Below, one piece after another: positions 21,868 to 38,830 of a stretch of DNA of 39,384 nucleotides. The notes beneath the pieces were generated by a model. That model did no database searches. It was not told where the DNA came from and worked only from the letters and a program-made list of their open reading frames with translations. Source of the DNA: Elusimicrobiaceae bacterium (GTDB lineage: Bacteria; Elusimicrobiota; Elusimicrobia; Elusimicrobiales; Elusimicrobiaceae). The position numbers were made by a program, and so were the translations under genes. How positions within the stretch are numbered: position 1 is the stretch's first letter; each line of letters opens with the position of its first letter. The DNA lies in contig JAEELM010000023.1 of assembly GCA_016282685.1 (NCBI GenBank), positions 1 through 39,384 of the forward strand. Direction: 5' to 3'.

Positions 21868-21879
21868 TTTATACTCCAT

Positions 21880-24236: not shown

Positions 24237-24547
24237 AAATTCTCCTCCATAAGGGGTTCGTCTTGGCGGTCAATCTCTGCTTGCGCAGTTTTTACTTCCG
24301 CCAAATACTCTGCCCGCATACGGGCATACACACCGGGCGAAGCTTCCTCCAAGGCAGTTAACAAAAACAGGCCAATGCTTTTTTGTCCGCAATGAAACGC
24401 CGTAGAAAAAGCATCCCCGGGTACAAAACCGTGCTGACCGATTTGAGCACTTTGCAACACGCGGTACAAAACGCGCCGGCCTTCCACGGTGGATAAAACC
24501 GTTTGCAAATCACAAACGTTTCTTTTTTGTAAGATTTTTTCTTTCAT
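24233..24547 (-). CDS. Bbp19-like phage structural protein
   Basis: A 104-residue protein matching the short Bbp19 domain of BPP-1-like phages: VLSTVEGRRVLYRVLQSAQI, then FHCGQKSIGLFLLTALEEASPGVYARMRAEYL. It lies between portal and scaffold, where this family is usually found. Its exact job is not known to me. The ATG has no SD. Instead a perfect 11-bp hairpin sits 9 bp upstream. The stop overlaps the scaffold start. Confidence 0.8.
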   Translation of the reverse strand: MKEKILQKRNVCDLQTVLSTVEGRRVLYRVLQSAQIGQHGFVPGDAFSTAFHCGQKSIGLFLLTALEEASPGVYARMRAEYLAEVKTAQAEIDRQDEPLMEENL

Positions 24548-24693: not shown

Positions 24694-26232
24694 TTAATTT
24701 TTTCCTTCAGAACAAGAGGAGGGTTCAGCAGTGATTGGAGATAGAGAAGGTGTTTTTAGTAAGTGTAACAAACCCAATTGATTCAGTCCGTCTTCCAAAG
24801 CACGGGAATAATCGATTTGTTCTAAGATAGCAGGCTTACTTTGCGCCAGCAAGCTTGCATATTCCATAGCCTGGGCCAATGTACGAAGGCCGGAAGCTTT
24901 TTGTGCCTGGGCAATCATAGAAATATATTCCACACCCAGCGGAATCCCCTGAATAAAGGCCGGAGCAGGCGGTAAAACGCCTTGCCGCAACAAAATACAA
25001 AAAGTGCGGTGAATCAGCGGATCCAACAATTCACCTTTCAAACGTTCCAAAACAGGCCCTAATACTAACATTTTTTCTTCGTGACGTTCGGCTACTTCCG
25101 CAGCTGTCATTCGTTGGGTTTGCAAAGAAGAAAGCAGCGTAAATACGTCGGCAAAAAAATGAGCCCGAACAGTATTGCGCACATTCTCGATAGCGTTGTC
25201 CAACGCCTGCAGATCCGGCTGCACTTCATAAGCCGGTTTTACGGCCGCGTCCGTTGTGCCACTATAGCGGGTAATTCCGCCGGGGAGCAAATTTACTTCC
25301 CCTTGCACATTGGCTGAAACCATCATGGGAGGATTGGTATTTTTATCCAAGGCTACCAATTTTGTTTTCTGCATTTTTTGCAGCATTTTAACATCTCCCA
25401 AGCACTTCCAGCCCGGTCCGCGGCCGTAAGTTTCTTCGCTGTTCTTGACTTCCCACCGCGCTGCAATAACCGGGAATTCATGATACCCGCTTTCACGCAG
25501 TAGGGTTCCTTCGGGCAGAAAATAGACAGAGGTATAAGCAAAATGGCAATTGTCTTGTCGTGATACATCATAATGCGGATTGGGAAAAATAAGATGAATG
25601 ACACGATACGTACGTGATTGATTTTCCTGCGCGGCCTGTTTTATTTGTGGCGGCAATACTCCCGCTCCAAACGTACGTAGCAACTGACGTGCCGTTAAAG
25701 AAAATTCCCGACCGAATGTATTAATCTGGCCTTTTTCATCTACATCCAGCACATATTCCCCCGCCGTAAAGAGACGGGCACGAACGCCTTTTTCCAAATC
25801 TTCTTCCAATAAAAAAGCCGCCGTTCCAAATACAGAAATTTCATGGTAAAAGCCATGTAACACGCCGTATACATTGCTTTTGGCAAATGTTTCTTCCAAA
25901 CGTTTTTTTACTTCTTCCAACCAAACACAAACACCCGGCAAATGATTTAATTCTGCCGGTGTAAGCGACAAATTAAACCAACTGCGCGCAGGGCTGGTCA
26001 GTCCGCTCATCATGCCGGCACTCAGCACTTCCGCCGCCAAAGATGCAGAACTGTCTAATAAGACCTTATGATTAATACGCTGGCCTTTCCCGGCAGCATC
26101 TTGCGAGAAAAATCCACGCGTTGGTGCAACGTAGGTAGCCAATTCTTTCCACGTTTTGGCCCACGGTGCGCGAGTGTTTTGTAGTGCGTCGTAAAGACGG
26201 AGATATTCAGTTATTCTTTTATTTTGTTTCAT
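24694..26232 (-). CDS. Portal protein (podovirus head-to-tail connector)
   Basis: A 512-residue protein of the T7 gp8 / BPP-1 connector family. The N-terminus (ITEYLRLYDALQNTRAPWAKTWKELATYVAPTRGFF) and the block SSASLAAEVLSAGMMSGLTSPARSWFNL (about residues 58-86) are typical, as is VYGVLHGFYHEISVFGTAAFLLEED (about 120-145). The C-terminal LQTQRMTAAEVAERHEEKMLVLGPVLERLKGELLDPLIHRTF helix (about 385-425) is also a hallmark. Twelve copies form the ring through which DNA is packaged and ejected. In most phages the portal gene directly follows terL; here 10 kb of other genes lie between. Confidence 0.92.
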   Translation of the reverse strand: MKQNKRITEYLRLYDALQNTRAPWAKTWKELATYVAPTRGFFSQDAAGKGQRINHKVLLDSSASLAAEVLSAGMMSGLTSPARSWFNLSLTPAELNHLPGVCVWLEEVKKRLEETFAKSNVYGVLHGFYHEISVFGTAAFLLEEDLEKGVRARLFTAGEYVLDVDEKGQINTFGREFSLTARQLLRTFGAGVLPPQIKQAAQENQSRTYRVIHLIFPNPHYDVSRQDNCHFAYTSVYFLPEGTLLRESGYHEFPVIAARWEVKNSEETYGRGPGWKCLGDVKMLQKMQKTKLVALDKNTNPPMMVSANVQGEVNLLPGGITRYSGTTDAAVKPAYEVQPDLQALDNAIENVRNTVRAHFFADVFTLLSSLQTQRMTAAEVAERHEEKMLVLGPVLERLKGELLDPLIHRTFCILLRQGVLPPAPAFIQGIPLGVEYISMIAQAQKASGLRTLAQAMEYASLLAQSKPAILEQIDYSRALEDGLNQLGLLHLLKTPSLSPITAEPSSCSEGKN

Positions 26233-26289
26233 AATTTTCTTTCCTGCAGAAATAGGAGAAATTTACTAATATGTAGAGGGAGGTGCAAT

Positions 26290-26478
26290 ATGATGGGATT
26301 AATAATGATTTTTGTTTTTGTATTGTTGGTAGCTGTACCGGGGTTTTATATCATCACACGGAAAATATTTCCAAAGATGAGTAAGCGAAAAGCCGCGTGG
26401 CTTACGATGGCACTTACGTTGATAGTGATAGGCTTACTGGTGGTGAATTTACTACTACTTCCTTCACCTGTTCAATAA
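26290..26478 (+). CDS. Small membrane protein, moron-like
   Basis: A 62-residue protein on the opposite strand to the late genes. Two hydrophobic segments (about residues 3-22 and 40-58) are joined by a basic loop (TRKIFPKMSKRKAAW). GGGAGG lies 6 bases before the ATG at 26290. A strong terminator follows 9 bp after the stop. Gene plus terminator sit between the seven-gene array and the portal gene, so it looks like an independent lysogen-expressed unit. A role in superinfection exclusion is possible for such small membrane proteins but is only a guess. Confidence 0.7.
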   Translation: MMGLIMIFVFVLLVAVPGFYIITRKIFPKMSKRKAAWLTMALTLIVIGLLVVNLLLLPSPVQ

Positions 26479-26544: not shown

Positions 26545-26601
26545 ACAAAGTTCTAGAATTAGAACAAAGTTATTATAGCATAAAAATAATGCCTTTGTCA
26601 A
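26545..26601 (-). promoter_or_regulatory. Strong minus-strand promoter with operator-like inverted repeat
   Basis: TTGACA (26596-26601), 18 bases, TATAAT (26572-26577) with an extended TG. The expected start near 26565 falls on a perfect inverted repeat GTTCTA-GAAT-TAGAAC (26550-26565), flanked by two direct copies of ACAAAGTT (26545 and 26564). It lies just after the seven-gene array and points at the portal gene, running antisense through the small membrane protein gene. Confidence 0.7.
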
Positions 26602-26628: not shown

Positions 26629-27984
26629 CTACGGAATAATCATGGGAGATAGATCTTGTAAAAACACGACCATATCCGCTCCAATAGAACGTTTGAATTC
26701 GTCTAATTGAGAAGAAGTAAGGCCCTGTTGAGGACTAGGCTCTTTAAAAGAAAGAACATATTTCCCGTTGTGGGCCTCTGAAAATTCACGCCATAATGAA
26801 ATTTTATCTTCCAACATTGCCAAAATCGGGTTGGTTTCTTTCCGACGAAAATCAAGAAGCATCACAGAAAAAGCTTTTCCATTCAATTTGTTGGCAACAG
26901 AGCTGACATTATGATACGAAAGATGTTGTGCCCCGGCATGCACGACCACCAATGCATTGGGATCTTGCGCCTTGATTTGGCGAATGTACTCCACCCATTT
27001 TTGGTTACGCATTTCCATTCCGGCTTCACTTCCGGCAAGAATACGCCGATAAGAGCCGGCCTTTTCAAGAGGCACTCCCGCATTTTCAGCGGCTTCTTTC
27101 GTCAGCGCAACATACGGTTCCAACCCCACCACAGGAATACCCATTTTAAGCGCTTTGTGGAGGAAGAAAAAATCTACATAAAGTCTTTTTCCTATCAAAT
27201 CAAGCAATTCTTGTTTATTACGGACTATCGCCAAAGCAGAAGTTTCCCCCTTAGAGATATCGGCAGCGTCCCACACATATTCGGTGGCCAAATAAATATT
27301 ACGGTTGGGGTAGTGACGTTGAAGGGTTTGTAAAATGGACAAAAGCTCTTCCTGCATCATTGGATTTTCATGCAGTTCCCCCACATAAACAAAATCTACC
27401 GATTCAAACGGAAGATATTGGTCATACGGAATGTCACCGTCAAAAACGCGGGAACGCAACGCAGAATAAAACAGAGCACTTTGCTTTTCTACCGCTGCAA
27501 TACGTTGCATGGAATGCGCTAGAGAGGCCCGTAAAATCCGATTATTTTCTCCCCACAATCGAGGAAAATTTTCTTTTCTCAAAGTAGCCTTTGCATCAAG
27601 CTGGGGAAAATACGGTACATATTTCATAAAAGGACCGGAAATGGAAACAGGTTTTCCCCCCACCGAATAATGCCTTTCATAAGTTGACGGCAAACTGGAG
27701 ACAGGAGCCACCGTAATTTGAGGCGCAGAATAATTATATTTTATTTCATGCGTGGCACATCCATTTGCCGGTAACAAAGCCCGTTCTGCCCCCATCAGCG
27801 GCACTTGTGTTACCCCTTCGCGCGCAGCACTTTCCATAGCGGCCCGGGCGGCATTATCCGCGGCTTGCGGCAGTTGTGCCCCGGCCGGTACACTTCCTAT
27901 ACACAAAAAGCACACGGCCACCGCATACGTGCTGGGGTAACGAATTAGATTTTTTATGAAAGGGATTATAAAATTTTTCTTCAT
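26629..27984 (-). CDS. Secreted ChaN/TraB/TIKI-like protein, array copy 1
   Basis: A 451-residue protein, last of seven tandem paralogues. Signal peptide about residues 1-37 (ending AGAQ, with a long basic start). Shared post-signal segment 38-75 (VPLMGAERALLPANG). Superfamily motifs: GELHEN at 202-207, YLATEYV with E235, VVGLEP at 285-290, MRNQKW at 325-330, and HAGAQH at 349-354. The last is HAG instead of the usual HGG. The family includes the haem-binding lipoprotein ChaN, pheromone-shutdown TraB/PrgY and TIKI proteases. The substrate here is unknown. Closest array relative is copy 3. It overlaps copy 2 by 4 bp and ends before a regulated promoter. Confidence 0.85.
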   Translation of the reverse strand: MKKNFIIPFIKNLIRYPSTYAVAVCFLCIGSVPAGAQLPQAADNAARAAMESAAREGVTQVPLMGAERALLPANGCATHEIKYNYSAPQITVAPVSSLPSTYERHYSVGGKPVSISGPFMKYVPYFPQLDAKATLRKENFPRLWGENNRILRASLAHSMQRIAAVEKQSALFYSALRSRVFDGDIPYDQYLPFESVDFVYVGELHENPMMQEELLSILQTLQRHYPNRNIYLATEYVWDAADISKGETSALAIVRNKQELLDLIGKRLYVDFFFLHKALKMGIPVVGLEPYVALTKEAAENAGVPLEKAGSYRRILAGSEAGMEMRNQKWVEYIRQIKAQDPNALVVVHAGAQHLSYHNVSSVANKLNGKAFSVMLLDFRRKETNPILAMLEDKISLWREFSEAHNGKYVLSFKEPSPQQGLTSSQLDEFKRSIGADMVVFLQDLSPMIIP

Positions 27985-29336
27985 TGCATCTCCGGTTTTG
28001 CGTTGTGTACAATCAACGTTAAATCTGCCCCTAATGTGTTTTTAAATAACTCTCGCATCTGCGGGGTAAGGCCGGCTTCTTCATCAACGGGCCGGAGGGA
28101 AAAGAGAGCTTTGGTCTCCGGTTCGTTTTCAAACCTTTTAGTATCGACCGGCGAAAACAACATATCGTAAAAAATGGGCGGCAACAATACTTCATTTTCA
28201 GTGTTTATGACACTAAGTGTGAATGATTCTCCCGGTAAAGACTTGGAAACCGATAGCAATTCTGCCGAAGAAACATGCATATTTCCGCCGTGTACCACAA
28301 TTAAGGCATTTGGTTCTTGCGCACGCAATTTAAGGATCCTTTCTACCCAGTACTTGTTACGCAGTGCAATACCCAGCTGGCTACCCCACATCCGCTTCAA
28401 CAAAATAGGCTGGTCAACGTAAGAAGATATTACCTCTTCTTCTTGTAATTTATCTATATACTGTACCAATGCATTGTAAGGCTCCAAGCCGACCAGCGCA
28501 ACACCTTGTGCCATTAGTTTTTTCAAAAACCATCTATCTTGCACCCAATCTTTGTGTCGCCCGGCTTGTATTTCAAAGAAAGGATCTTCGGCAGAGTAAA
28601 TAATTTTCAAAGGGTCCTCTTTGCCCCAATACTCCTGGCCGGTTCTTTCTCCCTGGCTGTATAAAGACTCCGTTACGAAATAAATCTGACGGTTCGGTTC
28701 GCGCTCTTTGAGCACACGCATCAGTTGTAAAATTTCTTCTCCCACTGCCGGTAAGCTGTGGGTTTCTCCGATAAAAACATAATCCAAATGTTTGTGGGGC
28801 AAATATTTAGCATAATCAACATCCCCTGTAATTAATTCGTAAGGAGTGCTGGAGTAAAACAGGCGGGTGTTTTGTTGGGCTTGGGCCATATTTTTCATAA
28901 AATACTTCAAAGTGTGACGCAACAATTTCTCATTAATGACTCTGTATTGCGGAATATATTGTGCATTTCCTTCAAGAAACGGCTTGTCCACCATATTAAT
29001 TCTAACGGAGAGATTCTTATACGTTTCCGGATTTATCCAGAAAAAACTCTGATCCAATACGATGGAAACAGGAGTTTTCTCTCTGGAAACAGGGGCCACG
29101 GAACTTTCAGTGGGGTTCTCTGTGTTATATACAACACTGTACTGAGGCAATCCGTTTGCGGGCAGTAATTCTTTTTCAGCAGCTGTAAGCGGTATTTGTT
29201 TTACCGCAGCACGGGCTGCACTCTCTGCCACGGCACGGGTGGCACCTCTCATCAATTGCGGCACTTGTGCTTGCACAGAAATACATGCAACACTTATCCA
29301 CACAAATGCCATCAAAATATTTTTTACCCAGTTCAC
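27981..29336 (-). CDS. Secreted ChaN/TraB/TIKI-like protein, array copy 2
   Basis: A 451-residue protein with signal peptide 1-24 (ending VQAQ). The post-signal segment 25-62 is nearly the same as in copy 3 (GATRAVAESAARAAVKQIPL). Motifs: IGETHSLP with E191 and H193, YFVTES with E223, LVGLEP at 281-286, LRNKYW at 325-330, and VVHGGNMH ending at H354. GETH rather than GExHEN, and the run PAVGEEIL after it, group it with copy 4. It lies 20 bp after copy 3, the widest gap in the array. Predicted periplasmic or surface protein, possible metal- or haem-dependent hydrolase or binding protein. Activity not established. Confidence 0.85.
   Translation of the reverse strand: MNWVKNILMAFVWISVACISVQAQVPQLMRGATRAVAESAARAAVKQIPLTAAEKELLPANGLPQYSVVYNTENPTESSVAPVSREKTPVSIVLDQSFFWINPETYKNLSVRINMVDKPFLEGNAQYIPQYRVINEKLLRHTLKYFMKNMAQAQQNTRLFYSSTPYELITGDVDYAKYLPHKHLDYVFIGETHSLPAVGEEILQLMRVLKEREPNRQIYFVTESLYSQGERTGQEYWGKEDPLKIIYSAEDPFFEIQAGRHKDWVQDRWFLKKLMAQGVALVGLEPYNALVQYIDKLQEEEVISSYVDQPILLKRMWGSQLGIALRNKYWVERILKLRAQEPNALIVVHGGNMHVSSAELLSVSKSLPGESFTLSVINTENEVLLPPIFYDMLFSPVDTKRFENEPETKALFSLRPVDEEAGLTPQMRELFKNTLGADLTLIVHNAKPEMQ
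29188..29247 (-). repeat. 60-bp tract identical to 30546-30605 (array copy 2)
   Basis: Encodes the post-signal Ala-rich segment. Every base is identical to the matching tract of copy 3, 1358 bp away, while the genes around it have diverged widely. It is probably a gene-conversion or recombination tract. Confidence 0.9.
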
Positions 29337-29356
29337 ATTTTCTCCTAATAACTGCT

Positions 29357-30733
29357 CTAAAATCTGTGTAACACTACCGTCATATCGGCCCCCAAGGCGT
29401 GGAGGATTTTTTCCCGATCCTGCGGTAATACTTCTTCTCCTGCCGGCTTCAGCGTGAATACATATTTGTTCGATTTTTTCTTATAAAAATGTTCCTTCTG
29501 CGTAAAACCAAGCTCTATTCTCGAAAATACCGGAGAAGTCAACAACCCCTCAACAGGGGAAATATTAATTACAAATTTATTTCCTTCCAGTTGTTGGGAA
29601 ACAGGAAAATCTTGGTCGTAACCAACATGTGCCAAACCTCCGTGCACAATAATCAGCGCGTCGGGGTCTTGGGCACGCAAACGTTGCAATGTTTTTACCC
29701 ATTCTTGGTTGCGTTTTTCCATGCCCGAACTACTAACCCTAAAAAGGAAAAGAATTTCGTCTTCATCAATATCAGAGATCCTTTCATTCTTCCCGGGTGT
29801 ATGCTTAAGCGTAAGCGACGGTTCCAACCCTACCACCGGGATATCCAAGGCCATAATTTGCTTGAGCAAGCGGTGATTTTCACGACGGTAAGAGACGCCT
29901 TCTATATTCAAATCTTCAAATTGATGTGATATTGCCAGCGGCTCTTCGGAATAAAAAATAATTTCATTTTTTTCTTCCCCGTTTCCGTCTCTGACGAGTT
30001 CCAATGCACTAAAAGGTTTATTGGTGCTGCTTGCATATTCGGTGGCAAAATAAATTTTACGCATAGGTTCACGCTTCCGAACCGTGCGGATTAAATTCAT
30101 AATTTCTTCGCGGACTCGTTGGTTTTCGTGCACTTCTCCAATGAACAAATAGTCTATTCTTTCTGAGGGCAAATAGCGGTAATAGGGAATGGCATCTTCA
30201 AACACCTCACCTTGCAACAAACGGTAGAAAAGTTGGCCATTATTTTCCACATTCAAAATATGTTGAACGGAGTTTTCCAATTCCCTCACCGACACAAGAG
30301 CATCTCTCTCAGCGTATTGCGGGAACTTGCCGCTATGGCCATAATCTTCCGTAAAATAATTCAAATAATCCCCCCGTGCAACCGGCGGGACATACACTTG
30401 GTGCGTACCGATCCGCACTATTTGTCCGTTTTGGGGGACAATTACCGGAATGACAGACGTTCGGAAAGATTGCCTGTCTTGCGGGTAAAGAATTTTATGC
30501 GTTACTTTCCCGGCTACGGGCAATACTTCTCTTTCGGCAATCGTCAGCGGTATTTGTTTTACCGCAGCACGGGCTGCACTCTCTGCCACGGCACGGGTGG
30601 CACCTTCCGCCACTTGCGGTAACTGAGCGCAGACCGGAGAAGACAATAACATTCCCGCCGCAACAGCTAAAATGCCTACATAATACCGTTTAGGCAACGT
30701 ATTAAAAATGGAAATATAGGAAAAATAGCTCAT
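29357..30733 (-). CDS. Secreted ChaN/TraB/TIKI-like protein, array copy 3
   Basis: A 458-residue protein with a long signal region (residues 1-37, hydrophobic part 19-32, ending VCAQ). Motifs: FIGEVHEN with E200 and H202, YFATEY with E232, VVGLEP at 300-305, KRNQEW at 340-345, and IVHGGLAH ending at H369. It lacks strong similarity to its neighbours in the 240-330 stretch, so the region between the TE and LEP motifs is where the copies differ most. Groups with copy 1 by GExHEN and GMExRNQxWV. It overlaps copy 4 by 4 bp (ATGA), so translation is coupled. Confidence 0.85.
   Translation of the reverse strand: MSYFSYISIFNTLPKRYYVGILAVAAGMLLSSPVCAQLPQVAEGATRAVAESAARAAVKQIPLTIAEREVLPVAGKVTHKILYPQDRQSFRTSVIPVIVPQNGQIVRIGTHQVYVPPVARGDYLNYFTEDYGHSGKFPQYAERDALVSVRELENSVQHILNVENNGQLFYRLLQGEVFEDAIPYYRYLPSERIDYLFIGEVHENQRVREEIMNLIRTVRKREPMRKIYFATEYASSTNKPFSALELVRDGNGEEKNEIIFYSEEPLAISHQFEDLNIEGVSYRRENHRLLKQIMALDIPVVGLEPSLTLKHTPGKNERISDIDEDEILFLFRVSSSGMEKRNQEWVKTLQRLRAQDPDALIIVHGGLAHVGYDQDFPVSQQLEGNKFVINISPVEGLLTSPVFSRIELGFTQKEHFYKKKSNKYVFTLKPAGEEVLPQDREKILHALGADMTVVLHRF
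30546..30605 (-). repeat. 60-bp tract identical to 29188-29247 (array copy 3)
   Basis: Partner of the tract in copy 2. Identity begins and ends sharply, as expected for a recombination patch. Confidence 0.9.
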
Positions 30734-32061
30734 TTTTCCTCCACTTCATGGACCAAAACCAACATATCAGATCCCATTGTGTTTTTGAATAATTGACGTA
30801 CTTCTTCCGTACGTCCCACCGTCTCATCTACCGGTTTAAGAGTAAAAAGCAGTTTTGCATTTTCGCTATTATTAAATTGCTCTTCTATAACCGGTCCTAC
30901 TCTCATGCTCATGAAAATGGGAGGCAACACCCATTGTTTCCCGACTCCGATGAAGGACAAAGTAAATGATTTTCCCGGTAAAGAACGACCGATAGATCCT
31001 AATTCGTCCCAAGAGATATGACCATTTCCGCCATGTACTACAATCAAAGCATCAGGGTCTTGCTCGCGCAACTGCAACAAAATTTCTTTCCATTTTTTAT
31101 TACGCAAAGACATTCCGTGGTCACTGCCCCAAAAATCAATCCACAAAGATTCCTCTTTTATTCCCTCAGGAAATGACTGTTTGAAAAACTCACGCACCAT
31201 CATTCGAGAAGGCTCCAACCCCACCAAATCCACCCCTTGTGCCAGTAACTTTTCCAAGTACCAAGCGTATTTTGCTCTTTCATTTTTCCGCCGATTTAAT
31301 ACTTTAAAAACTGGATCTTCTACGGAACGGACAACGTGTAAAAGGGGCAAATCTGTAATTAAACGGTCCCGTCCATCCTCAACAGTATTGCTCAATATTT
31401 CGGTAGCAAAATAAATTTTGCGGGAAGGTTCCCTCTCTTGCAACATACACAACACCCGCAGAACTTCTTCTCCCACCAGAGGGGTGTCGTGCGTTTCTCC
31501 AATAAATACATAATCCAAATGCTCACGCGGGAAATAGGAAGCATAATCGATATTTCCCATAACCACTCCATAAGAGACGCTTGAATAAAATTGGCCAAGA
31601 TTTTGATTGACTGCTTCTAAATTTTTAATTTTAAACGATAAAAGATGACGTGCCAAATTTTCGTTAATCGCCCGGTATTCCGGGAAATATCTACTCGTGT
31701 TTTCTAAGAATCTATTCTCAATTTTTAGAATATGGACCATATAATTTTGCACTAACGGGGGCAATTCTAAATATGAATTTCCCAAAGGCAGTTTGACAGG
31801 TTCGGTGGCCCAAATAATAGGCTCTACGGTACTGGCAGCCGGCACTGCATTATAATTCACTTGGTACATTGGCAGTCCCGCAACAGGTAAAATCTCTTTT
31901 TCGGCCGCCGTCAAAGGCACCTGCTTGACGCTGGCACGTGCAACACTTTCCACAGTATTGCGGGAGGCATTTTCTACTGCTTGCGGCAACTGACCATATA
32001 CTGACGACGTCAGTGTTGCGCACATTACCCCCACCCAAAGAGAATTACTGCTACATTTCAT
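30730..32061 (-). CDS. Secreted ChaN/TraB/TIKI-like protein, array copy 4
   Basis: A 443-residue protein, the shortest copy. Signal peptide 1-24 (ending VYGQ). Post-signal VKQVPLTAAEKEILPVAG. Motifs: FIGETHDTP with E189 and H191, YFATEI with E221, LVGLEP at 279-284, LRNKKW at 319-324, and VVHGGNGH ending at H348. Shares with copy 2 the HLDYVFIGETH context, PxVGEExL and a LPGxSFTLSxI strand, so copies 2 and 4 are one subfamily. It overlaps copies 3 and 5 by 4 bp each. Confidence 0.85.
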   Translation of the reverse strand: MKCSSNSLWVGVMCATLTSSVYGQLPQAVENASRNTVESVARASVKQVPLTAAEKEILPVAGLPMYQVNYNAVPAASTVEPIIWATEPVKLPLGNSYLELPPLVQNYMVHILKIENRFLENTSRYFPEYRAINENLARHLLSFKIKNLEAVNQNLGQFYSSVSYGVVMGNIDYASYFPREHLDYVFIGETHDTPLVGEEVLRVLCMLQEREPSRKIYFATEILSNTVEDGRDRLITDLPLLHVVRSVEDPVFKVLNRRKNERAKYAWYLEKLLAQGVDLVGLEPSRMMVREFFKQSFPEGIKEESLWIDFWGSDHGMSLRNKKWKEILLQLREQDPDALIVVHGGNGHISWDELGSIGRSLPGKSFTLSFIGVGKQWVLPPIFMSMRVGPVIEEQFNNSENAKLLFTLKPVDETVGRTEEVRQLFKNTMGSDMLVLVHEVEEK

Positions 32062-33407
32062 TTTTGATTCCTTCTAATAAACTGATTGAAATAATTTTTT
32101 AAACGAGTTGCCAAAGTGATTTCGGTTTCTTCTTTTGAAGGAGAAATAATCACGGCCATGTCCGTTCCCAAGCCTTCTCTAAATTCACGCAGATCCTCAG
32201 GTGTACGACCCACCGTAAGATCCGGTTGTTTTAAGGACAGTACATACCGCCCGTTTGTTTTTTCATTCTGTACCAAATTTTGAACAAGGGATACTTCTTT
32301 GTTTAAATCTGCCAAAGACGGAGTAACAAATACACTATCCAAACGTTCATCTAACAACAAAATAGAAAACGCTTTCTCCGGCAAAATACGGGGAACAGAA
32401 GTTGCCTCCCAATAGTTTAAATGGGCAGCCCCGCCGTGCACCACAATAAGAGCCGTCGGATCTTTGGCATGAAGTTCTTTCAAATGGTTCACCCATACAT
32501 TACTACGCAAAGTAAAGGAAAGTTCACTATTGATAAATACTTCTTCTAATTCGCCGAGATCTTCCTCATTTATTTTTTTGTCGCTAATTTCTTTTTCAAA
32601 TTCCAACTGCATTTGAATAATCGGCTCTAATCCCACAATGGGGAAACCGTCTTTTGAAATTTGCCGTAAGAATGGGAAACGTTCACATCTAGCATCAAAA
32701 GTGCCAATCATCTCCAACTCCCGGGGATTTGACAGAATGTTGACCGGCACCGTTTGTGCGATAGGAGCCGGGAATAACGTATCCGGTAAATACTCGGTTG
32801 CAAAATAAATTTTGCGCGACGGATAGCGGCGGCGCAGCGTATGTAAAAGATCTAACAGGGTGTCATAGATAAGCTGATTTTCATGCATTTCCCCTACATA
32901 AAAATACGTGATATCATCTAAAGTGGAAGGCAAATAGCGTTCCCAGGGAATTGCATTTTCAAAATAATTCAAGCGTAAAGCGGAATAAAAAGAAGAATGC
33001 AAATCTACGGCCAACAAACGCTCCATATTCGTTTGGGCAATTCTTGTGTACAGAGCACTGTTCATTTTACTGTAATAAGGAAATAAAGTGGGATTTAATC
33101 TGCTTTGGGGTAATGCTGTAAATTGTGCTACGGCTCTTTGTTGTTGTTGAATGTTTGCAATCATTGCACTCCCTTGGGAGGGATTATATTGCATTTCATA
33201 TTTCACGATACCGTCTACCGGCAATAATTTTTCCTCTGCCGCTGTCAGAGCCGCTTGTGTTACGGTGGCACGGGCTCCTTCTTGCGCAGAGATTCTTTCC
33301 CCGGCACGCACGGCATTCTTCACCACCTGCAATCCTTGCGCCCAACCGGTGGCATTTACGCACCATAAAAATAGGAATCCTAATAAAGAAATGTGCAATT
33401 TTTTCAC
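32058..33407 (-). CDS. Secreted ChaN/TraB/TIKI-like protein, array copy 5
   Basis: A 449-residue protein with signal peptide 1-24 (ending GWAQ). Motifs: YVGEMHEN with E173 and H175, YFATEY with E205, IVGLEP at 257-262, LRSNVW at 300-305 (the second position is S where the others have N), and VVHGGAAH ending at H329. Shares DDITYFYVGEMH and the PDTL segment with copy 6. The C-terminus carries an extra basic amphipathic tail (TRLKNYFNQFIRRNQK) that could bind membrane or peptidoglycan. It starts 4 bp after copy 6. Confidence 0.85.
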   Translation of the reverse strand: MKKLHISLLGFLFLWCVNATGWAQGLQVVKNAVRAGERISAQEGARATVTQAALTAAEEKLLPVDGIVKYEMQYNPSQGSAMIANIQQQQRAVAQFTALPQSRLNPTLFPYYSKMNSALYTRIAQTNMERLLAVDLHSSFYSALRLNYFENAIPWERYLPSTLDDITYFYVGEMHENQLIYDTLLDLLHTLRRRYPSRKIYFATEYLPDTLFPAPIAQTVPVNILSNPRELEMIGTFDARCERFPFLRQISKDGFPIVGLEPIIQMQLEFEKEISDKKINEEDLGELEEVFINSELSFTLRSNVWVNHLKELHAKDPTALIVVHGGAAHLNYWEATSVPRILPEKAFSILLLDERLDSVFVTPSLADLNKEVSLVQNLVQNEKTNGRYVLSLKQPDLTVGRTPEDLREFREGLGTDMAVIISPSKEETEITLATRLKNYFNQFIRRNQK

Positions 33408-33411
33408 ACGA

Positions 33412-34821
33412 TCACTCCTCAGAGGATTTTCTCATTTGTTGCCATTTCGTTTTTAAGTAGCCCCACAATGTTTTCATTGTTGATTGGGGATAACCAACTA
33501 TGGATATTACATCGGCACCCAAACCTTTGCGGAATGTCTCCAAATCTTCCGCTGTACGCCCGGCATCTTCATCTACCGGTTTGAGGGACATTACATAATG
33601 CACGCCTTGCTTTTCGGCTTTCAGTGCCTCTGAAATACCGGTTTCCCGGTTCAAATCGTTCAGAATCGGCCCATTAAATACCTCTTCCAACCGTGTATCA
33701 TACAAGAAAACTGTGAATGTCTTGCCTGTTTCTTCTTTAAGCATCAAAGGAACAGAGTTTGGATTAAACCAATTTAAATGGTCACCTCCGCCGTGCACTA
33801 CGATCAAAGCATCGGGGTCTTGTGCGTGCAAGTCCCGTAAATGCTCCACCCATTTTTTATTGCGTTCCGTGACACCTACCCGGCTAGCACGAAATTGATT
33901 CATCAAACCAACGATTTTTTCATCATCCTTTACTCCACGCATCTCTTTTTTCAGCATTCCCTGTATTGTAATAGTAGGATCTATACCCACCACCGGGAAC
34001 CCATCTTCCACAATATCTTTTAAGAAAGAGAATTCTTGTTTGTACGCTTCCATTTGCATGGTTTTTAAATCTTCCCAATTGGTGGCAATAGACAACGATA
34101 TCCTTGATCTAAAAGGAAGCGGAAGTAACGTATCGGGTACGTATTCCGTAGCAAGATAAATTTTGCGCGTAGGATTGCGGCGGCGCAACGTACGCAACAA
34201 AGGAAGCAATTCTCTTTGCACTACTTCATCTCGGTGCATTTCTCCCACGTAAAAATACGTAATATCATCCAGGGAAGAAGGTAAATAATTATCCCACACT
34301 ACGTCATTTTCAAATCGGTCTAACCGTAACGCAGAATAAAACGAAGCGTTCTCATAACTCTCCTTTCTGCGAATGCTTGCTTGCTCGATGGCTCTACGGA
34401 TAGAATCCATCTCGGCCGCTCTAAAAGAAGGGAAGTATTTTGTGGGCACCCCTTGCTTGATTACGTAGCTCCAAATATACTTCATGTCCATACGGGGAAT
34501 AAAAGGCATTGTGTTCACCTTGGCTCTGTTCCCCGGGTAGTACCGGAGGGTATGCGTAACAGTCCCGTTTTGGGGCAAGAGGGCCAATTCCGCATCCGTT
34601 AAGGGAACCTGCGGCACATTGGCGCGTGCCGTGCCTGCAACAACAGAACGGGCCGCAGTACTTGCAGCACTACTCATGGCAGCCTCTGTTGCAGCAGCGG
34701 TAGCCTGTGTAGCGGTACGCACGGTACTTTCCACTACGGTTGGCACTTGGGCAAAACTATTGGTAAATAAAAATCCAAATAAAGAAACAATTAAAACCCT
34801 TTGCTTCTCTTTCATATTCAC
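33412..34821 (-). CDS. Secreted ChaN/TraB/TIKI-like protein, array copy 6
   Basis: A 469-residue protein with signal peptide 1-25 (ending SFAQ). An Ala/Thr-rich insertion (residues 35-68, TATQATAAATEAAMSSAAS) lengthens the post-signal segment before VPQVPLTDAELALLPQNG. Motifs: YVGEMHRD with E194 and H196, YLATEY with E226, VVGIDP at 277-282 (D in place of the Glu found in the other copies), ERNKKW at 319-324, and VVHGGGDH ending at H348. It has a basic C-terminal tail (TLWGYLKTKWQQMRKS) like copy 5. Gap to copy 7 is 3 bp. Confidence 0.85.
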   Translation of the reverse strand: MNMKEKQRVLIVSLFGFLFTNSFAQVPTVVESTVRTATQATAAATEAAMSSAASTAARSVVAGTARANVPQVPLTDAELALLPQNGTVTHTLRYYPGNRAKVNTMPFIPRMDMKYIWSYVIKQGVPTKYFPSFRAAEMDSIRRAIEQASIRRKESYENASFYSALRLDRFENDVVWDNYLPSSLDDITYFYVGEMHRDEVVQRELLPLLRTLRRRNPTRKIYLATEYVPDTLLPLPFRSRISLSIATNWEDLKTMQMEAYKQEFSFLKDIVEDGFPVVGIDPTITIQGMLKKEMRGVKDDEKIVGLMNQFRASRVGVTERNKKWVEHLRDLHAQDPDALIVVHGGGDHLNWFNPNSVPLMLKEETGKTFTVFLYDTRLEEVFNGPILNDLNRETGISEALKAEKQGVHYVMSLKPVDEDAGRTAEDLETFRKGLGADVISIVGYPQSTMKTLWGYLKTKWQQMRKSSEE

Positions 34822-34824
34822 CTC

Positions 34825-36276
34825 TTATTGGCCTTTTCCTTCAAGTTCCTTCAGTTGTCTCTGTAAGTCTTCAATACTTGTGGCTCCAATAATTCTTGGA
34901 CCTCCAATATTCGATTCTTCCTTTGGCAAACTGTTCAACATTTCCCGTTCATGTTCGGGGAGAATATCGCTGAATGTTACTATCACATCAGCGCCCCAAG
35001 CTTTCTTGTAGAGTTCTTGCATGTCAGGGGCAAGTTGATAAAACTCGGGCTTAAAAGAAATCACTTCTTTGGCTTCCGCTTTGACAAAGCTTTCAGGAGA
35101 TTCCGTTGTGCATATTTCCTGATAGAACGAAGGAGAAATTCTGTGAAGATTTTCTATAGGTAAATTTTGCACAACAAAAGATTTTTCTTTTAACAAATTG
35201 GGAACGGAAAACAGGGTGTTACGGTTCATGTGGGCAGCTCCGCCGTGCACCACAATTAAGGCATCCGGATATTGGGCATGTAAATCTTCCAAATGTTCCA
35301 CCCACTTGCGGTTACGTTCTTTGACAATTACTTTACTTCTTGCGAATATATAGAAATTTTTCATTTCCGCTTCGGTCATTTCCGTCAACCCTCTTTCTTT
35401 CAAAAAGGCATCTACTAATGCGCTATCGGGTTCGATACCAACTAAGTCAATTCCCAAATCCATCACATCTTCCAGAATCTGCAAAACCGGGCCTTTTCTT
35501 CCCTTCAATGCCCGATTTAATTCTTCTTTTGTCCGCAACAGGACCGTAGCTGGATGATCTGCAAAAGTACTTTTTTCAAGTGTATCGCCAACGTATTCAG
35601 TAGCAAAAATCATTCTACGGTTAGGATTTTGTTTTCTCAAAGCTTTTACTAATTGGAAAATAGATTGGTGAACGTCGTAATTATTATGAGCTTCCCCCGC
35701 AAAAATAAAATCCACAGGTTCTGTGGGCAAATATTTTTCCCACGGAATGGTTTGATAAACTTCATCTTTGAGGTATTTCAAAAATTCGGTTTCGTGCGGA
35801 GCCCATTTTTCAAAGTTATTTATCACATTACGCAACCACCTTTCTGAGGCTTGTTCATCCAAACGGGCATAGTTGGGAAATAGGTCTTTCGGCAAAGTAC
35901 GGCCGTAGTTAATATACATCCATTTAATATTTTGTGAAAGTCTTTTAGACAATTGCAGATTAAATTCTGTCAGCGTTACTTGGCCATATCTCTGAGTTGG
36001 ATAGATCCTAACTACGCCGGGTTCACCAGTGAATTGATACTGAACCATATGGGTTGGATTCCCGTTAGCGGGCAAAAGGGCTTGTTCTTCCGCAGTCAGC
36101 GGAACTTGCCGAACCATGGCGCGGCTTATGTTTCCGGCCATAGTATTTGTCACAGTTTCCCCAACAGCACGAGTGGCACCTTCGACAATTTGCGGCACTT
36201 GGGCAAAACTACAAGGGCACAACACCCCCAATAAAAAAGCCAACCCTACACAAAAATTTCCTATCTTCATTTGCAT
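34825..36276 (-). CDS. Secreted ChaN/TraB/TIKI-like protein, array copy 7 (first in the operon)
   Basis: A 483-residue protein, the longest and the promoter-proximal copy. Signal peptide 1-26 (ending SFAQ). Post-signal VRQVPLTAEEQALLPANG. Motifs: FAGEAHNN with E195 and H197, IFATEY with E227, LVGIEP at 278-283, ERNRKW at 320-325, and VVHGGAAH ending at H349. A unique C-terminal extension of about 40 residues ends in a charged helix (SIEDLQRQLKELEGKG). AGGAGA precedes the ATG. The next gene upstream is terL, 121 bp away. Confidence 0.85.
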   Translation of the reverse strand: MQMKIGNFCVGLAFLLGVLCPCSFAQVPQIVEGATRAVGETVTNTMAGNISRAMVRQVPLTAEEQALLPANGNPTHMVQYQFTGEPGVVRIYPTQRYGQVTLTEFNLQLSKRLSQNIKWMYINYGRTLPKDLFPNYARLDEQASERWLRNVINNFEKWAPHETEFLKYLKDEVYQTIPWEKYLPTEPVDFIFAGEAHNNYDVHQSIFQLVKALRKQNPNRRMIFATEYVGDTLEKSTFADHPATVLLRTKEELNRALKGRKGPVLQILEDVMDLGIDLVGIEPDSALVDAFLKERGLTEMTEAEMKNFYIFARSKVIVKERNRKWVEHLEDLHAQYPDALIVVHGGAAHMNRNTLFSVPNLLKEKSFVVQNLPIENLHRISPSFYQEICTTESPESFVKAEAKEVISFKPEFYQLAPDMQELYKKAWGADVIVTFSDILPEHEREMLNSLPKEESNIGGPRIIGATSIEDLQRQLKELEGKGQ

Positions 36277-36397
36277 TTCTCTCCTATTTTTCTAATAATA
36301 CTTCTACTCATATCCTAGATGAATTAAGAAGAGAAAACCAGGGCCCTTGGACCCATTTTTTTTGTTTTTTGGACCTAATAATTTAGGACCAAAAGGC
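36277..36397 (-). promoter_or_regulatory. Leader region of the seven-gene array
   Basis: Holds an imperfect inverted repeat TTTGGACCTAA / TTAGGACCAAA (36368-36393) just after the terL stop, a GGGCCC-centred hairpin near 36344-36357, and a weak promoter match (TTCATC, 17 bases, TATTAT) before the array. None has a clear T run, so readthrough from terL is likely, perhaps with an internal start. Confidence 0.4.
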
Positions 36398-37726
36398 CTA
36401 TAAAACCTCGTATTCACTTCGGGCAAATTCCGTTCGGTTCAAATGCAGGCGCGGGCGGACCGGGGCAGCAAAGGTGAGTGCCAAAGCGTCTGCCAAATCC
36501 GGGCTTTTGCCGGTGCGCTCTTTGATTTTTTCTTTTGGCTCTAAACGCAACCGGCCGGAAACATCATAGTCATAACATACGCTACATAAATCAGCTTTCA
36601 GGGCGGGCATATCCGGTAGAGCTCCCACTTCTTTCACCCATTGCGCCATTTCACTCCACATTTCGGCCCGTTTATTGGCATATTGCGTAGAACGGGAAGC
36701 TGCCGCCCCAAAAGCTACTTCCGTTACTGCATACCCTAACTGGCGCAAACGGTCAATTACTCCCCCTCCGCACCCGCTATCTATAAACACAGCGTCCGGG
36801 CGGAAGCGGTCTATTTCATGGGCGGCACGAGCCGCTAAAGTCATATTATCCAAGTGCGTAAATACCAACGGCTCTAATGCCTGGCAACCCTGACGGAAAA
36901 AAATAACGCTGCGGTCATCCCCAAAACGGGCCGGATCTATACCGATAATTTTGGGGGCCTCCTTTAGTTCCGATGGGGAATAGTGACGTGCGCACGCGCG
37001 GACCACTTCGTCAATGGGCAACAATATATCCGCTGAACTGGCAGAGAAATCACACAAATACTCTTGGCGAAAAATAGCTTCCGGAGTTTCTTGTTGTAGG
37101 CGGGCCAATTCCGCACGCGGAATCACGCCGGACTCATCTGCACGAAAGATACCTACCCACCATAAGTGCGGTTCCCGGATGGCATTTTTTTGTGCCCGGA
37201 TAAACAAATCGAAAAAAGCATTTTGCCCTTTGGGCGTGCCCATAAACACCACCCATCCGTCGCGTGACAAAAGCATAGGACGGATAATTTCGCTAAATAC
37301 ATCCGGCTTTATTTGGGCATACTCATCTAACACTACACCGTCGGCATACGTACCGCGCAGCGCATCAGGGTTGTCGGCACCGCATACCCAAATGCGTGAA
37401 TCGTTGGGTAATTTAAGAGACAGTTCCCCTTCGTAAACACGCACGTTGGGAAGAGGAGAAGCATACCGCTTCAAATAATCCCATGCTAATAATTTGGCCT
37501 GTTTCAACAACGGCGCCACGTAAAAATAACGTGCATGCGGCCGTGTGTTTTTAAGGGCACTTTTCAACAAATGATTTACGGCACAAACCGTTTTTCCCAA
37601 TTGCCGGTGTGTAACCAACACACAAAAACGGTGCGTCTCCAACGCCTGGTGAATCTTCCGTTGCACAGGACGCGGATGATAGGCAATAGATACCGCAACA
37701 TCTAATTGGGAAGAATGTTTAAGCAT
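36398..37726 (-). CDS. Terminase large subunit (TerL)
   Basis: A 442-residue DNA-packaging motor. ATPase half: deviant Walker A THRQLGKT (about residues 38-45, like the SRQLGKT of T4 gp17), Walker B GVVLDEYAQ (about 129-137), coupling motif MGTPKGQNAFFDLF. Nuclease half: IGIDPARFGDDRSVIFF (about 244-260), VFIDSGCGGGVIDRL (about 307-321), and a late acidic site SPDLADALALTF near residue 415. The start overlaps the small subunit gene by 8 bp. It packages DNA through the portal, whose gene lies 10 kb downstream instead of adjacent. Confidence 0.95.
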   Translation of the reverse strand: MLKHSSQLDVAVSIAYHPRPVQRKIHQALETHRFCVLVTHRQLGKTVCAVNHLLKSALKNTRPHARYFYVAPLLKQAKLLAWDYLKRYASPLPNVRVYEGELSLKLPNDSRIWVCGADNPDALRGTYADGVVLDEYAQIKPDVFSEIIRPMLLSRDGWVVFMGTPKGQNAFFDLFIRAQKNAIREPHLWWVGIFRADESGVIPRAELARLQQETPEAIFRQEYLCDFSASSADILLPIDEVVRACARHYSPSELKEAPKIIGIDPARFGDDRSVIFFRQGCQALEPLVFTHLDNMTLAARAAHEIDRFRPDAVFIDSGCGGGVIDRLRQLGYAVTEVAFGAAASRSTQYANKRAEMWSEMAQWVKEVGALPDMPALKADLCSVCYDYDVSGRLRLEPKEKIKERTGKSPDLADALALTFAAPVRPRLHLNRTEFARSEYEVL

Positions 37727-38141
37727 GGTCCTCTTCCTCCCACCGCACTACCAACGGGCCGGTAAAAGGAGTTTCTTCTTTGTTATCTTTCCAGCCCAGT
37801 AAATTTTTAGCGGTAAAAATAGCAAAAGAAGAAGCATAATTGCCGCGCAAACTGTTTTGCAAAAGGATATTCCCCTGCAAATCACGTGCGCGCTGTGCCG
37901 CTTGACCAAAAGCGGGATGCTTTTTCTCCCACATGTGCAGTACGGCAACAGTGGTACCCAGTTTTTTAGCAAAAGCAGCAAACGTGGGCAGTTCGCTGGC
38001 ATGTTCCACCAAAGAAACAGAACCATCTTTTTTAGCAATTTCCGTTATATGAAAAGCAGGCACATCAAAAAAACGAATTAACTCCTCACAAAAATCCGAA
38101 CAATAACGAATGGAATTTTTAACAGTTGTTTTCTTACGCAT
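37719..38141 (-). CDS. Terminase small subunit-like protein (TerS)
   Basis: A 140-residue protein directly before and overlapping terL. Residues of about 44-75 resemble a helix-turn-helix used to recognise the packaging site (ELPTFAAFAKKLGTTVAVLHMWEKKHPAFGQAAQRARDLQ). The C-terminus (NLLGWKDNKEE) is a common ending of small terminase proteins. AGGAGT lies 4 bases before the ATG at 38141. Upstream in-frame starts would add up to 30 residues overlapping the preceding gene and lack an SD. Confidence 0.82.
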   Translation of the reverse strand: MRKKTTVKNSIRYCSDFCEELIRFFDVPAFHITEIAKKDGSVSLVEHASELPTFAAFAKKLGTTVAVLHMWEKKHPAFGQAAQRARDLQGNILLQNSLRGNYASSFAIFTAKNLLGWKDNKEETPFTGPLVVRWEEEDHA

Positions 38142-38154
38142 ACTACTCCTGTAA

Positions 38155-38478
38155 TCATTCCGAAAAACTAGGTCCGCGCCCTTGCCATGAAGCCAATATG
38201 GCCGGGAAATCGCACGCAAACAAGGCAACATTTCCCTTTTGCTTCAGCACAGGCAGACAGGTTTGTTGTTTTTTAAAAGAAAGATAAATGCCGTCTTCAA
38301 TAGGTGAACTGGCCTGATTTTCTATCCCAAAAAAACGGTTGTAAACCCTGATAAGAGCGTTTAAATAAGCGTCCGTACTCAACGTACGCAACCGCCCTCT
38401 GACGCCTGCCACAGTTACCCCCAGGCAAGCGGCGCGGAAATAGATATCATTTTCTAATTTTAATTTTTTAGCATACAT
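38155..38478 (-). CDS. Small phage protein of unknown function
   Basis: A 107-residue protein, first gene of the late operon, 13 bp before the small terminase. Basic N-terminal half with many Leu, Tyr and Arg (LKLENDIYFRAACLGVTVAGVRGRLRTLSTDAYLNALIRVYNRFFG). The C-terminal half contains LYLSF-like and FACDFPAILASWQGRG segments. No family is recognised and no SD is clear before the ATG. It could be a regulator or a packaging accessory by position only. Confidence 0.65.
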   Translation of the reverse strand: MYAKKLKLENDIYFRAACLGVTVAGVRGRLRTLSTDAYLNALIRVYNRFFGIENQASSPIEDGIYLSFKKQQTCLPVLKQKGNVALFACDFPAILASWQGRGPSFSE

Positions 38479-38788: not shown

Positions 38789-38830
38789 GTGCTTTTGGAC
38801 CTCGGTGTTATTTTTGCAAAAGGAGCTCCT

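What the first reader, a model, noticed from the sequence alone, without database searches (positions are those of the whole stretch)
26629..36276. Seven tandem secreted ChaN/TraB/TIKI-like genes between terminase and portal of a prophage
Seven adjacent genes of 443-483 codons fill almost 10 kb between terL and portal, which are neighbours in most phages. Junctions are 4-bp overlaps or gaps of 3 to 20 bp. All have a signal peptide ending in a Gln after the Ala, and all keep GE-x-H, a TE after a beta strand, (L/I)(E/D)P, R-(N/S)-x-x-W and H-(A/G)-G-x-x-H in the same order and spacing. This is the motif logic of the ChaN / TraB-PrgY / TIKI / EreA-like superfamily (haem binding, peptide pheromone shutdown, proteolysis). 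I know of no phage with such an array. It could change the host surface, block peptide signals or bacteriocins, or exclude other phages. Diverged paralogues suggest several targets or an arms race.
Basis: partly seen in the sequence, partly recalled or inferred. Interest (0 to 1): 0.92.

Follow-up and report, generated by a model that had tools for sequence, protein, structure and literature searches.

The report
Exported enzyme array in domesticated phage
Seven neighbouring genes for exported enzyme-like proteins sit in a variable slot inside a set of phage particle genes that a group of animal-gut bacteria appears to have inherited from parent to offspring for a long time, which suggests the bacteria keep a tamed virus and use it to carry fast-changing secreted enzymes.

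Summary
Observation confirmed: seven tandem signal-peptide ORFs fill the gap between terL and portal. A structure model matches HopBA1, EreC, ChaN and a succinoglycan-biosynthesis protein, and the catalytic 2His/2Glu set of the TIKI superfamily is complete in 82 of 82 gap copies of 330 aa or more: probably exported hydrolases. "Prophage" needs revision. The podovirus-like capsid gene is in 62 of 66 genomes of this Elusimicrobiaceae genus and 0 of 83 others of the order. The cluster has no integrase within 100 kb on its contig in 22 of 22 genomes (some contigs short), is under strong purifying selection, and its tree recovers 15 of 16 supported RpoB splits. It is therefore a vertically inherited, domesticated, gene-transfer-agent-like element. 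The terL-portal gap is a recurrent cargo slot: 15 of 48 genomes have 1.6 kb or more there, and all 15 hold 1 to 11 copies of this family, upstream of a near-consensus promoter facing portal. Cargo diverges faster than portal, capsid and terL. The family also forms arrays elsewhere in these chromosomes. Particle production, gene transfer and substrate are untested; no earlier report turned up in the searches made.

The parts
34825..36276 (-). cargo copy 1 (nearest terL), 483 aa, exported TIKI-superfamily protein
   Evidence: (TraB_PrgY_gumN 27.4 bits, above the cut-off of 26.8)
33412..34821 (-). cargo copy 2, 469 aa
32058..33407 (-). cargo copy 3, 449 aa
30730..32061 (-). cargo copy 4, 443 aa; the copy whose structure was predicted
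   Evidence: (pLDDT 84.1, pTM 0.81)
29357..30733 (-). cargo copy 5, 458 aa
27981..29336 (-). cargo copy 6, 451 aa
26629..27984 (-). cargo copy 7 (nearest portal), 451 aa
   Evidence: (ChaN 22.8 bits, below the cut-off of 27.7)
26572..26601 (-). TTGACA-18-TATAAT promoter-like site (12 of 12) reading into portal; a site of 11 or 12 matches lies there in 38 of 41 genomes
26224..26478 (+). small antisense ORF (84 aa as called; related ORFs of about 60 aa in many other genomes) with a terminator-like hairpin at 26484-26507
36341..36354 (-). terminator-like hairpin between terL and cargo (consensus match only)
36398..37726 (-). terminase large subunit
   Evidence: phrog_2
37719..38231 (-). terminase small subunit
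   Evidence: phrog_3064
38155..38478 (-). small ORF before terS, conserved in part of the genus (cluster c20)
   Evidence: no PHROGs match
38760..38788 (-). TTGACA-17-TATATT promoter-like site upstream of the packaging genes, divergent from the repressor (consensus match only)
38789..39384 (+). phage-type transcriptional repressor, cut by the window end
   Evidence: phrog_4, E 3.5e-12
24694..26232 (-). portal / head-tail adaptor
   Evidence: phrog_332
24233..24547 (-). conserved 104-aa phage protein
   Evidence: phrog_528
23691..24236 (-). protein of the phrog_458 'protease' family, in the usual scaffold/protease position
22712..23689 (-). major capsid protein, 325 aa; 83-93% identical in the full-length relatives of the same element
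   Evidence: phrog_212
22319..22702 (-). conserved 127-aa phage protein
   Evidence: phrog_427
21289..21879 (-). tail protein (phrog_394; weaker match to a tail tubular family)
18683..21289 (-). tail protein, 868 aa
   Evidence: phrog_376
17867..18625 (+). conserved antisense ORF, 252 aa, no family match
16875..17834 (-). internal virion protein
   Evidence: phrog_308; weak T7 Gp13 match, below cut-off
14875..16860 (-). BspA-type LRR protein at the end of the cluster, possible tail fibre (inference from position)
   Evidence: no PHROGs match
13419..13491 (+). tRNA-Thr at the right border; possible ancestral attachment site (inference)
11095..13359 (+). host O-antigen-ligase-like gene; on the same contig as the capsid gene, 9-29 kb downstream of it, in 23 genomes; clear exceptions G045 and G055

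Best explanation
A gene cluster for a short-tailed phage particle was captured by an ancestor of this genus of gut Elusimicrobiaceae, lost its integrase and probably its replication genes, and has since been inherited vertically as a domesticated, gene-transfer-agent-like element (vertical inheritance and absence of a nearby integrase are shown; particle production and DNA transfer are inferred). The interval between the packaging genes (terS-terL) and the virion genes (portal onward, which have a conserved near-consensus promoter of their own) serves as a cargo slot. The slot holds zero to eleven copies of an exported TIKI-superfamily protein; in this genome it holds seven copies that belong to the portal-proximal lineage. 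Each copy has an export signal and an invariant 2His/2Glu set, so it most likely hydrolyses an ester or peptide bond outside the cytoplasm. My preferred reading is that these are host-serving secreted hydrolases ('moron' cargo). With no sigma70-type site found before them, I infer that they are expressed by read-through from the packaging genes. I infer further that they destroy or trim extracellular peptides, antibiotics or surface molecules, and that exchange and turnover of whole genes keeps the set diverse because the targets keep changing. Confidence by step: exported TIKI-superfamily fold with an intact active site 0.9; vertically inherited domesticated cluster 0.9; makes gene-transfer particles 0.5; cargo acts as a hydrolase on extracellular antagonists 0.35.
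For: Fold: model with pLDDT 84.1 and pTM 0.81; the five best Foldseek matches are HopBA1, succinoglycan-biosynthesis protein, EreC (twice) and ChaN, probability 1.00, E 5e-5 to 9e-4. 46 of 61 aligned members match Pfam ChaN/Tiki at E<=0.01. Active site: 2His/2Glu, shown essential in one TIKI endopeptidase (PMC6254334, passages read), is complete in 82 of 82 gap copies and 54 of 57 copies elsewhere (copies under 330 aa left out). Export: a signal-peptide heuristic is positive in 80 of 82 gap copies. Domestication: capsid gene in 62 of 66 genus genomes and 0 of 83 others of the order; distances of terL, portal and MCP follow RpoB, r = 0.88, 0.92, 0.84, 0 of 2000 permutations; 15 of 16 supported RpoB splits recovered, 0 conflicts; capsid dN/dS about 0.002-0.03; no tyrosine integrase within 100 kb on the element's contig in 22 of 22 genomes, whereas 4 of 6 second terL copies in those genomes have one within 11 kb (positions); nine left-flank proteins of relatives scanned, eight in cellular families, none phage-like. 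Slot: 15 of 48 genomes have gaps of 1.6 kb or more, and all 15 hold the family; promoter in 38 of 41 against 0.38 expected. Turnover: in G063/G067 portal and MCP dS is 0.16, cargo copies 1-3 have dS 0.9-1.6, and copy 4 has 0.16.
Against: No experiment shows particles, packaged DNA, transfer, secretion or hydrolysis. The genomes are draft assemblies, mostly metagenomic, and several contigs are too short to exclude a distant integrase (22.6 kb at the shortest). Window copies fall below Pfam's ChaN cut-off, and only one passes TraB's, narrowly. TM-scores by query length are low (0.27-0.34). The family has relatives in arrays outside the element, so the link to particle biology may be incidental. 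Presence of cargo on the RpoB tree is scattered (6 changes on 28 tips; random mean 7.0, 239 of 1000 random sets as low). The neighbourhood has been rearranged in some genomes (G045, G055). Two of six second terL copies also lack a nearby integrase (G060:C13, G063:C2), so absence of one is not proof of domestication. G005 and G076 show no terL, portal or capsid. Backbone dS is uneven in G063/G067 (terL 0.3, tail genes 0.38-0.48), and host flank genes in G020/G069 have dS 0.8-1.2, so cargo exceeds the host flanks by less than it exceeds portal and capsid.
Confidence: 0.55

Rival explanations
1. It is an ordinary temperate prophage that carries seven morons; its integrase and early genes lie beyond the window end at 39384.
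For: The window ends inside a phage-type repressor, and the structural genes are plainly phage-derived. Probable true prophages with related capsid genes exist in two genus genomes (G006:C9, G065:C2).
Against: In relatives with longer contigs the genes left of the repressor or of terS are host genes: T2SS E and F proteins, KsgA-like methyltransferase, formiminotransferase, MATE and ABC transporters, radical SAM (Pfam; order). No integrase within 100 kb on the contig in 22 of 22. The tree matches RpoB. The capsid gene is near-universal in the genus and was not found outside it in the order.
Confidence: 0.08
2. The cargo proteins are surface- or periplasm-acting exclusion or kin-recognition factors. 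They modify the cell's own receptors so that producers are not re-infected by particles or phages, and they vary to match changing tail fibres.
For: Exported, highly variable, encoded inside a particle gene cluster.
Against: Correlation with fibre type was not tested. 33 of 48 genomes have a gap under 1.2 kb, and the 8 of these read gene by gene hold no copy. Related arrays outside the element argue for a wider role.
Confidence: 0.2
3. The cargo proteins bind haem like ChaN and help acquire iron in the gut; the element is only a convenient expression site.
For: 46 of 61 members match the ChaN/haem-binding Pfam model weakly; ChaN is among the structural matches.
Against: The complete and invariant hydrolytic 2His/2Glu set fits the enzymatic branch. 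ChaN's haem ligands were not tested.
Confidence: 0.12
4. The cluster is a decaying remnant and the array is a selfish, recombining gene family that happened to land there.
For: Scattered presence, arrays at many chromosomal sites, some frames broken in one assembly (G073).
Against: Strong purifying selection on capsid, portal and terL; capsid ORF of 325 aa in most relatives; catalytic residues intact in 82 of 82 gap copies; gap copies form clades of their own with positional orthologues.
Confidence: 0.1

Closest known systems
Gene transfer agents (RcGTA, BaGTA, Brachyspira BhGTA; definition in PMC9662315)
   Same: Tailed-phage structural and packaging genes endogenised in the host and co-diversifying with it, as described there for the Brachyspira agents within one genus (passages and Introduction read).
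   Different: Structural proteins that I take to be T7-like/podovirus-type (inference from PHROGs and Pfam matches); a cargo slot with exported enzymes between terL and portal; particles and transfer not shown; host in a phylum for which no agent turned up in my paper searches (general search; listings only).
TIKI superfamily (Tiki, TraB/PrgY, ChaN, erythromycin esterases, Bcr135, HopBA1)
   Same: Predicted fold and 2His/2Glu residues in the same order.
   Different: A diverged family with about 160 residues before the core, in tandem arrays of up to 11 inside a phage-derived cluster; no PHROGs match for the 3 of 7 copies scanned and no relative in 50,697 phage records for the one copy searched.
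Prophage morons / lysogenic-conversion genes (recalled, no call)
   Same: Non-structural host-serving genes sitting between phage operons.
   Different: Here in a vertically inherited element, in multi-copy arrays of one family.

Membership tests
TIKI superfamily enzyme | 2His/2Glu catalytic set (E-x-H, second Glu about 30 residues on, second His) | tested here: met
   7 of 7 window copies, 82 of 82 gap copies; motif and its necessity from passages of PMC6254334
TIKI superfamily enzyme | parallel beta-sheet core flanked by helices, similar to ChaN/Ere structures | tested here: met
   alternating strands and helices in the model and Foldseek matches; one copy only; coordinates of the pocket could not be inspected
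ChaN (PF04187) proper | score above Pfam's curated cut-off | tested here: not met
   22.8, 19.2 and 21.0 bits against 27.7 for three window copies, no match reported for four
ChaN (PF04187) proper | haem-ligand residues and haem binding | not tested
   no alignment to ChaN ligands made
TraB/PrgY/gumN (PF01963) | score above Pfam's curated cut-off | tested here: inconclusive
   1 of 7 copies passes (27.4 against 26.8); 1 of 61 members matches at E<=0.01
Gene transfer agent | uses tailed-phage-derived proteins to form particles | tested here: inconclusive
   protein similarity met; particles not testable with these tools
Gene transfer agent | fully endogenised in the host genome | tested here: met
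   host genes on both sides in relatives; no integrase near
Gene transfer agent | vertically inherited, co-diversifies with the host | tested here: met
   (28 genomes with all genes at hand, one host marker)
Gene transfer agent | packages mostly random host DNA; cannot package its whole own genome; delivers DNA to other cells | not testable with these tools
   needs particles
Temperate prophage | own integrase | tested here: not met
   0 of 22 within 100 kb on the contig; contigs of 22.6 to 700 kb, so not all 100 kb were visible in every genome
Temperate prophage | own replication genes | tested here: inconclusive
   none recognised in the gene orders read, but not every ORF was searched
Temperate prophage | patchy distribution and trees in conflict with the host | tested here: not met
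   62 of 66 genus genomes; tree congruence

The most novel reading that the evidence does not exclude
An independent gene transfer agent in Elusimicrobiota whose cluster carries a fast-recombining battery of exported hydrolases. The hydrolases are made together with the packaging genes and released or displayed when particles are made, and they act as a kin-specific licence or weapon: they remove barriers or inhibitors around related recipient cells so that the packaged DNA reaches the right neighbours.
Probability: 0.15. Interest if true: 0.92.

Novelty: new variant of a known kind. Interest (0 to 1): 0.76.

Why it matters
If particles are made, this would be an independently domesticated phage in a phylum of largely uncultured animal-gut bacteria, with portal and capsid genes that follow the host tree across the genus. 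The cargo slot would offer a natural experiment on how hosts add secreted enzymes to a tamed phage. It would also give the TIKI superfamily a large, diverse set of probably active bacterial members whose substrates can be assayed.

Tried and rejected
Considered and rejected: (1) ordinary prophage. (2) A phage-specific gene family: the same superfamily forms arrays at other chromosomal sites, mostly as separate clades (45 non-gap tips, support 0.997; 9 non-gap tips, support 1.0); three non-gap copies (G000:C17, G000:C28, G017:C12) sit among or beside gap copies. (3) Positive selection as the cause of diversity: dN/dS of cargo pairs is about 0.1-0.4, so gene replacement and turnover is the better account. 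(4) A promoter of its own before the cargo: no site with 10 or more of 12 matches in 15 of 15 genomes. (5) An endolysin at the right end of the cluster, noted by eye in relatives: the one copy scanned had no Pfam match at E<=1e-5, so it is not claimed.

Led nowhere: NCBIfam (only weak matches far below cut-off), PDB by sequence (best E 0.22), IMG/VR with the family alignment (one peptide pattern, so weakly sensitive), phage records with one copy, viral structure library (five matches of probability 0.99-1.00, among them Hokovirus and Klebsiella phage Miami proteins, E 8e-4 to 6e-3, TM-score by query length 0.21-0.31), literature on Elusimicrobia with gene transfer agents, prophages or domestication, on Avelusimicrobium and on Elusimicrobium minutum genomes, judged from search listings only. 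The second structure job and a test of cargo against tail-fibre type were not run.

Limits of counts: RpoB was found in 41 of 61 genomes; I used 33 of them, and 28 had terL, portal and MCP in the fetched stretches. Gap lengths are for the 48 genomes with both main copies on one contig. Of 48 gaps, 23 were read gene by gene. For the family tree, copies under 330 aa were dropped, and non-gap copies over 620 aa as well. Non-gap copies are a chosen sample of loci, not all. Genus genomes are 61 drawn from a larger group. The promoter control shuffles single bases, and related genomes are not independent. The signal-peptide heuristic gives a bonus to Gln. ORFs were called by a simple longest-ORF script, so starts are approximate.

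None of this changed my odds.
Full report
What is there. Seven co-directional ORFs of 443-483 aa occupy 26629-36276 on the minus strand, with three 4-bp overlaps and gaps of 3, 4 and 20 bp. They lie between a terminase large subunit and a portal/head-tail adaptor. In the alignment of the seven, GE-x-H, TE, (E/D)P, R-x-x-x-W and H-x-G-x-x-H are kept throughout.

What the proteins are. Pfam gives sub-threshold ChaN matches for three copies and one narrow TraB pass. With 61 gap members aligned, 46 match the ChaN/Tiki model at E<=0.01. AlphaFold gave a confident model of copy 4 (pLDDT 84.1, pTM 0.81). Its five best PDB matches are HopBA1, succinoglycan-biosynthesis protein, EreC (two entries) and ChaN, all with probability 1.00; TM-scores are modest (0.27-0.34 by query length). 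In one characterised TIKI endopeptidase two His and two Glu (E-x-H, a Glu 30 residues later, and a distal His) are each essential, and a relative without them showed no activity in the same assay (PMC6254334, passages read). In this family E189, H191, E221 and H348 (copy 4 numbering) are complete in 82 of 82 gap copies and in 54 of 57 copies elsewhere. The three exceptions include a chromosomal copy on contig C17 that groups with window copy 34825-36276 (support 1.0) and lacks three of the four. A signal-peptide heuristic is positive in 80 of 82 gap copies, with Gln after the predicted cleavage site in 68. I conclude: exported, probably active hydrolases of the TIKI superfamily (activity is an inference).

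What surrounds them. The window holds terS, terL, portal, a protein of the phrog_458 'protease' family, capsid protein, two tail proteins, an internal virion protein and an LRR protein, plus a phage-type repressor at the window end. Related terL genes occur in 54 of 61 sampled genus genomes and portal in 56 of 61. The capsid protein occurs in 62 of 66 genus genomes, at 83-93% identity for the element's own copy and with second copies in three genomes, and in 0 of 83 other genomes of the order. Named relatives are uncultured Elusimicrobiaceae whose record titles point to ruminants, chicken and other animals, one of them Ca. Avelusimicrobium excrementipullorum. Of the 53 such loci, NCBI places 16 in Elusimicrobium, 1 in Ca. 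Avelusimicrobium, 8 in the family only, and 28 carry no family, so the genus name is my reading. The nearest other terL genes are 59% identical (a viral contig, capped list), 55% (a second copy in one of these genomes, L163) and 52% or less in Desulfovibrio, Sutterella and others; phage records reach 47%.

Why it is not a normal prophage. Distances of terL, portal and MCP follow those of RpoB (r = 0.88, 0.92, 0.84; 0 of 2000 permutations reach this; 28 genomes). The mean capsid distance (0.115) is about that of RpoB (0.100). The joint terL+portal+MCP tree recovers 15 of 16 RpoB splits with support of at least 0.9, none in conflict; label shuffles share at most 3 of 25 splits. Single-gene trees recover 12 to 14 of 16, and the portal tree conflicts with one. 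Selection is strongly purifying, with capsid dN/dS about 0.002-0.03. The tyrosine integrase family is absent within 100 kb on the element's contig in 22 of 22 genomes, some contigs being short. As a control, of six second terL copies in those genomes four have an integrase within 11 kb (G006:C9, G065:C2, G043:C4, G022:C2) and two do not within 40 kb or at all on the contig (G063:C2, G060:C13) (positions). A host ligase gene lies 9 to 29 kb downstream of the capsid gene in all 23 genomes in which both share a contig (coordinates). G045 (element inside a long contig, ligase on another) and G055 (31 kb visible downstream without it) are clear exceptions, and in the rest the contigs end early or their length is unknown to me. 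Left flanks are of three kinds; nine proteins from them were scanned and eight fall in cellular families such as T2SS E and F, rRNA adenine dimethylase, formiminotransferase, MATE, ABC and DcuC transporters and radical SAM, the ninth being a sub-threshold peptidase match.

The cargo slot. In 48 genomes with terL and portal on one contig the gap is under 1.2 kb in 33 and 1.7-15.6 kb in 15. Of 23 gaps read gene by gene, those 15 all hold the family (1 to 11 copies) and the other 8 hold none. A TTGACA-16..18-TATAAT-type site with at least 11 of 12 matches lies 311-661 bp before portal in 38 of 41 genomes, against 0.38 expected from shuffles and 0 on the other strand; relatedness means these are not independent events. 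In the 15 array genomes read it lies on the portal side of the cargo (positions). No site with 10 or more matches lies between terL and cargo in 15 of 15, so read-through from the packaging genes is my inference.

History of the cargo. In a tree of 139 members (82 gap, 57 elsewhere), gap copies mostly form their own clades: a portal-proximal lineage, which includes all seven window copies, and terL-proximal lineages. Most copies from other sites form separate clades of 45 tips (support 0.997) and 9 tips (support 1.0). The copy nearest portal tends to group by species group, which suggests an old resident gene that was later multiplied or lost. In a smaller search the family was found in 18 of 25 genus genomes and 0 of 16 others of the order. 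Presence in the gap on the RpoB tree needs 6 changes on 28 tips, not clearly fewer than random, so gain and loss are frequent. In the close pair G063/G067, portal and MCP have dS 0.16 and 99% identity, cargo copies 1, 2 and 3 have 74, 42 and 63% identity and dS 0.92, 1.59 and 1.18, and copy 4 has dS 0.157; terL is at 0.3 and the tail genes at 0.38-0.48. In G020/G069 cargo dS is 1.4-2.3, backbone 0.4-0.7 and host flank genes 0.8-1.2. Replacement or turnover of whole cargo genes explains this better than point mutation. Pairs taken by position may be paralogues, which would inflate these values.

What it most likely does. Shown: signal-peptide-like starts, TIKI-like fold (one model), intact active-site residues, in a vertically inherited phage-derived cluster under purifying selection. 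Inferred: particles, DNA transfer, co-expression with packaging genes, and hydrolysis of changing extracellular targets. Rivals are exclusion or kin recognition, haem use, a remnant with a selfish family, and a cut-off ordinary prophage.

Novelty. Searches of the open paper library for Elusimicrobia with gene transfer agents, prophages or domesticated phages, and for Avelusimicrobium, showed no report of this in the listings; subscription papers and preprints were not covered. By the published definition of gene transfer agents (PMC9662315, Introduction and passages read) two features are met here, one is partly tested, and the rest need particles. I rate it a new variant of a known kind.

Noticed in passing
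window 26572-26601: A near-perfect sigma70-type promoter site facing portal is conserved across the genus, with a small antisense ORF in the leader; antisense or leader control of the virion genes is possible.
   Followed up: partly
G000:C17 (L012:8142-9536): A relative of window copy 34825-36276 at another site that lacks three of the four 2His/2Glu residues, perhaps a non-catalytic derivative.
   Followed up: partly
G000:C27 (L009:2770-16451), G000:C48 (L010), G000:C26 (L011): Further arrays of the same superfamily away from the element: 11 tandem copies running to a contig end on C27, 2+3 copies on C48 and 2 on C26.
   Followed up: partly
G006:C9 (L352, L353) and G065:C2 (L354): Second capsid copies at 65 and 73% identity with an integrase about 15 kb away: probable true prophages related to the domesticated cluster. 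In G006 the terL-portal gap there is only about 0.4 kb, too short for cargo.
   Followed up: partly
window 1967-4394: Run of small ORFs grouped with pseudopilin-like proteins (the two scanned carry the N-terminal methylation motif); relatives lie beside terS or inside the terL-portal gap in several genomes.
   Followed up: no
window 17867-18625: Conserved antisense ORF of about 250 aa inside the tail genes, no family match.
   Followed up: no
L166-L187: Contigs of Desulfovibrio, Sutterella, Mailhella and others carry relatives of this terL at about 45-52% identity, probably in prophages (context not examined).
   Followed up: no
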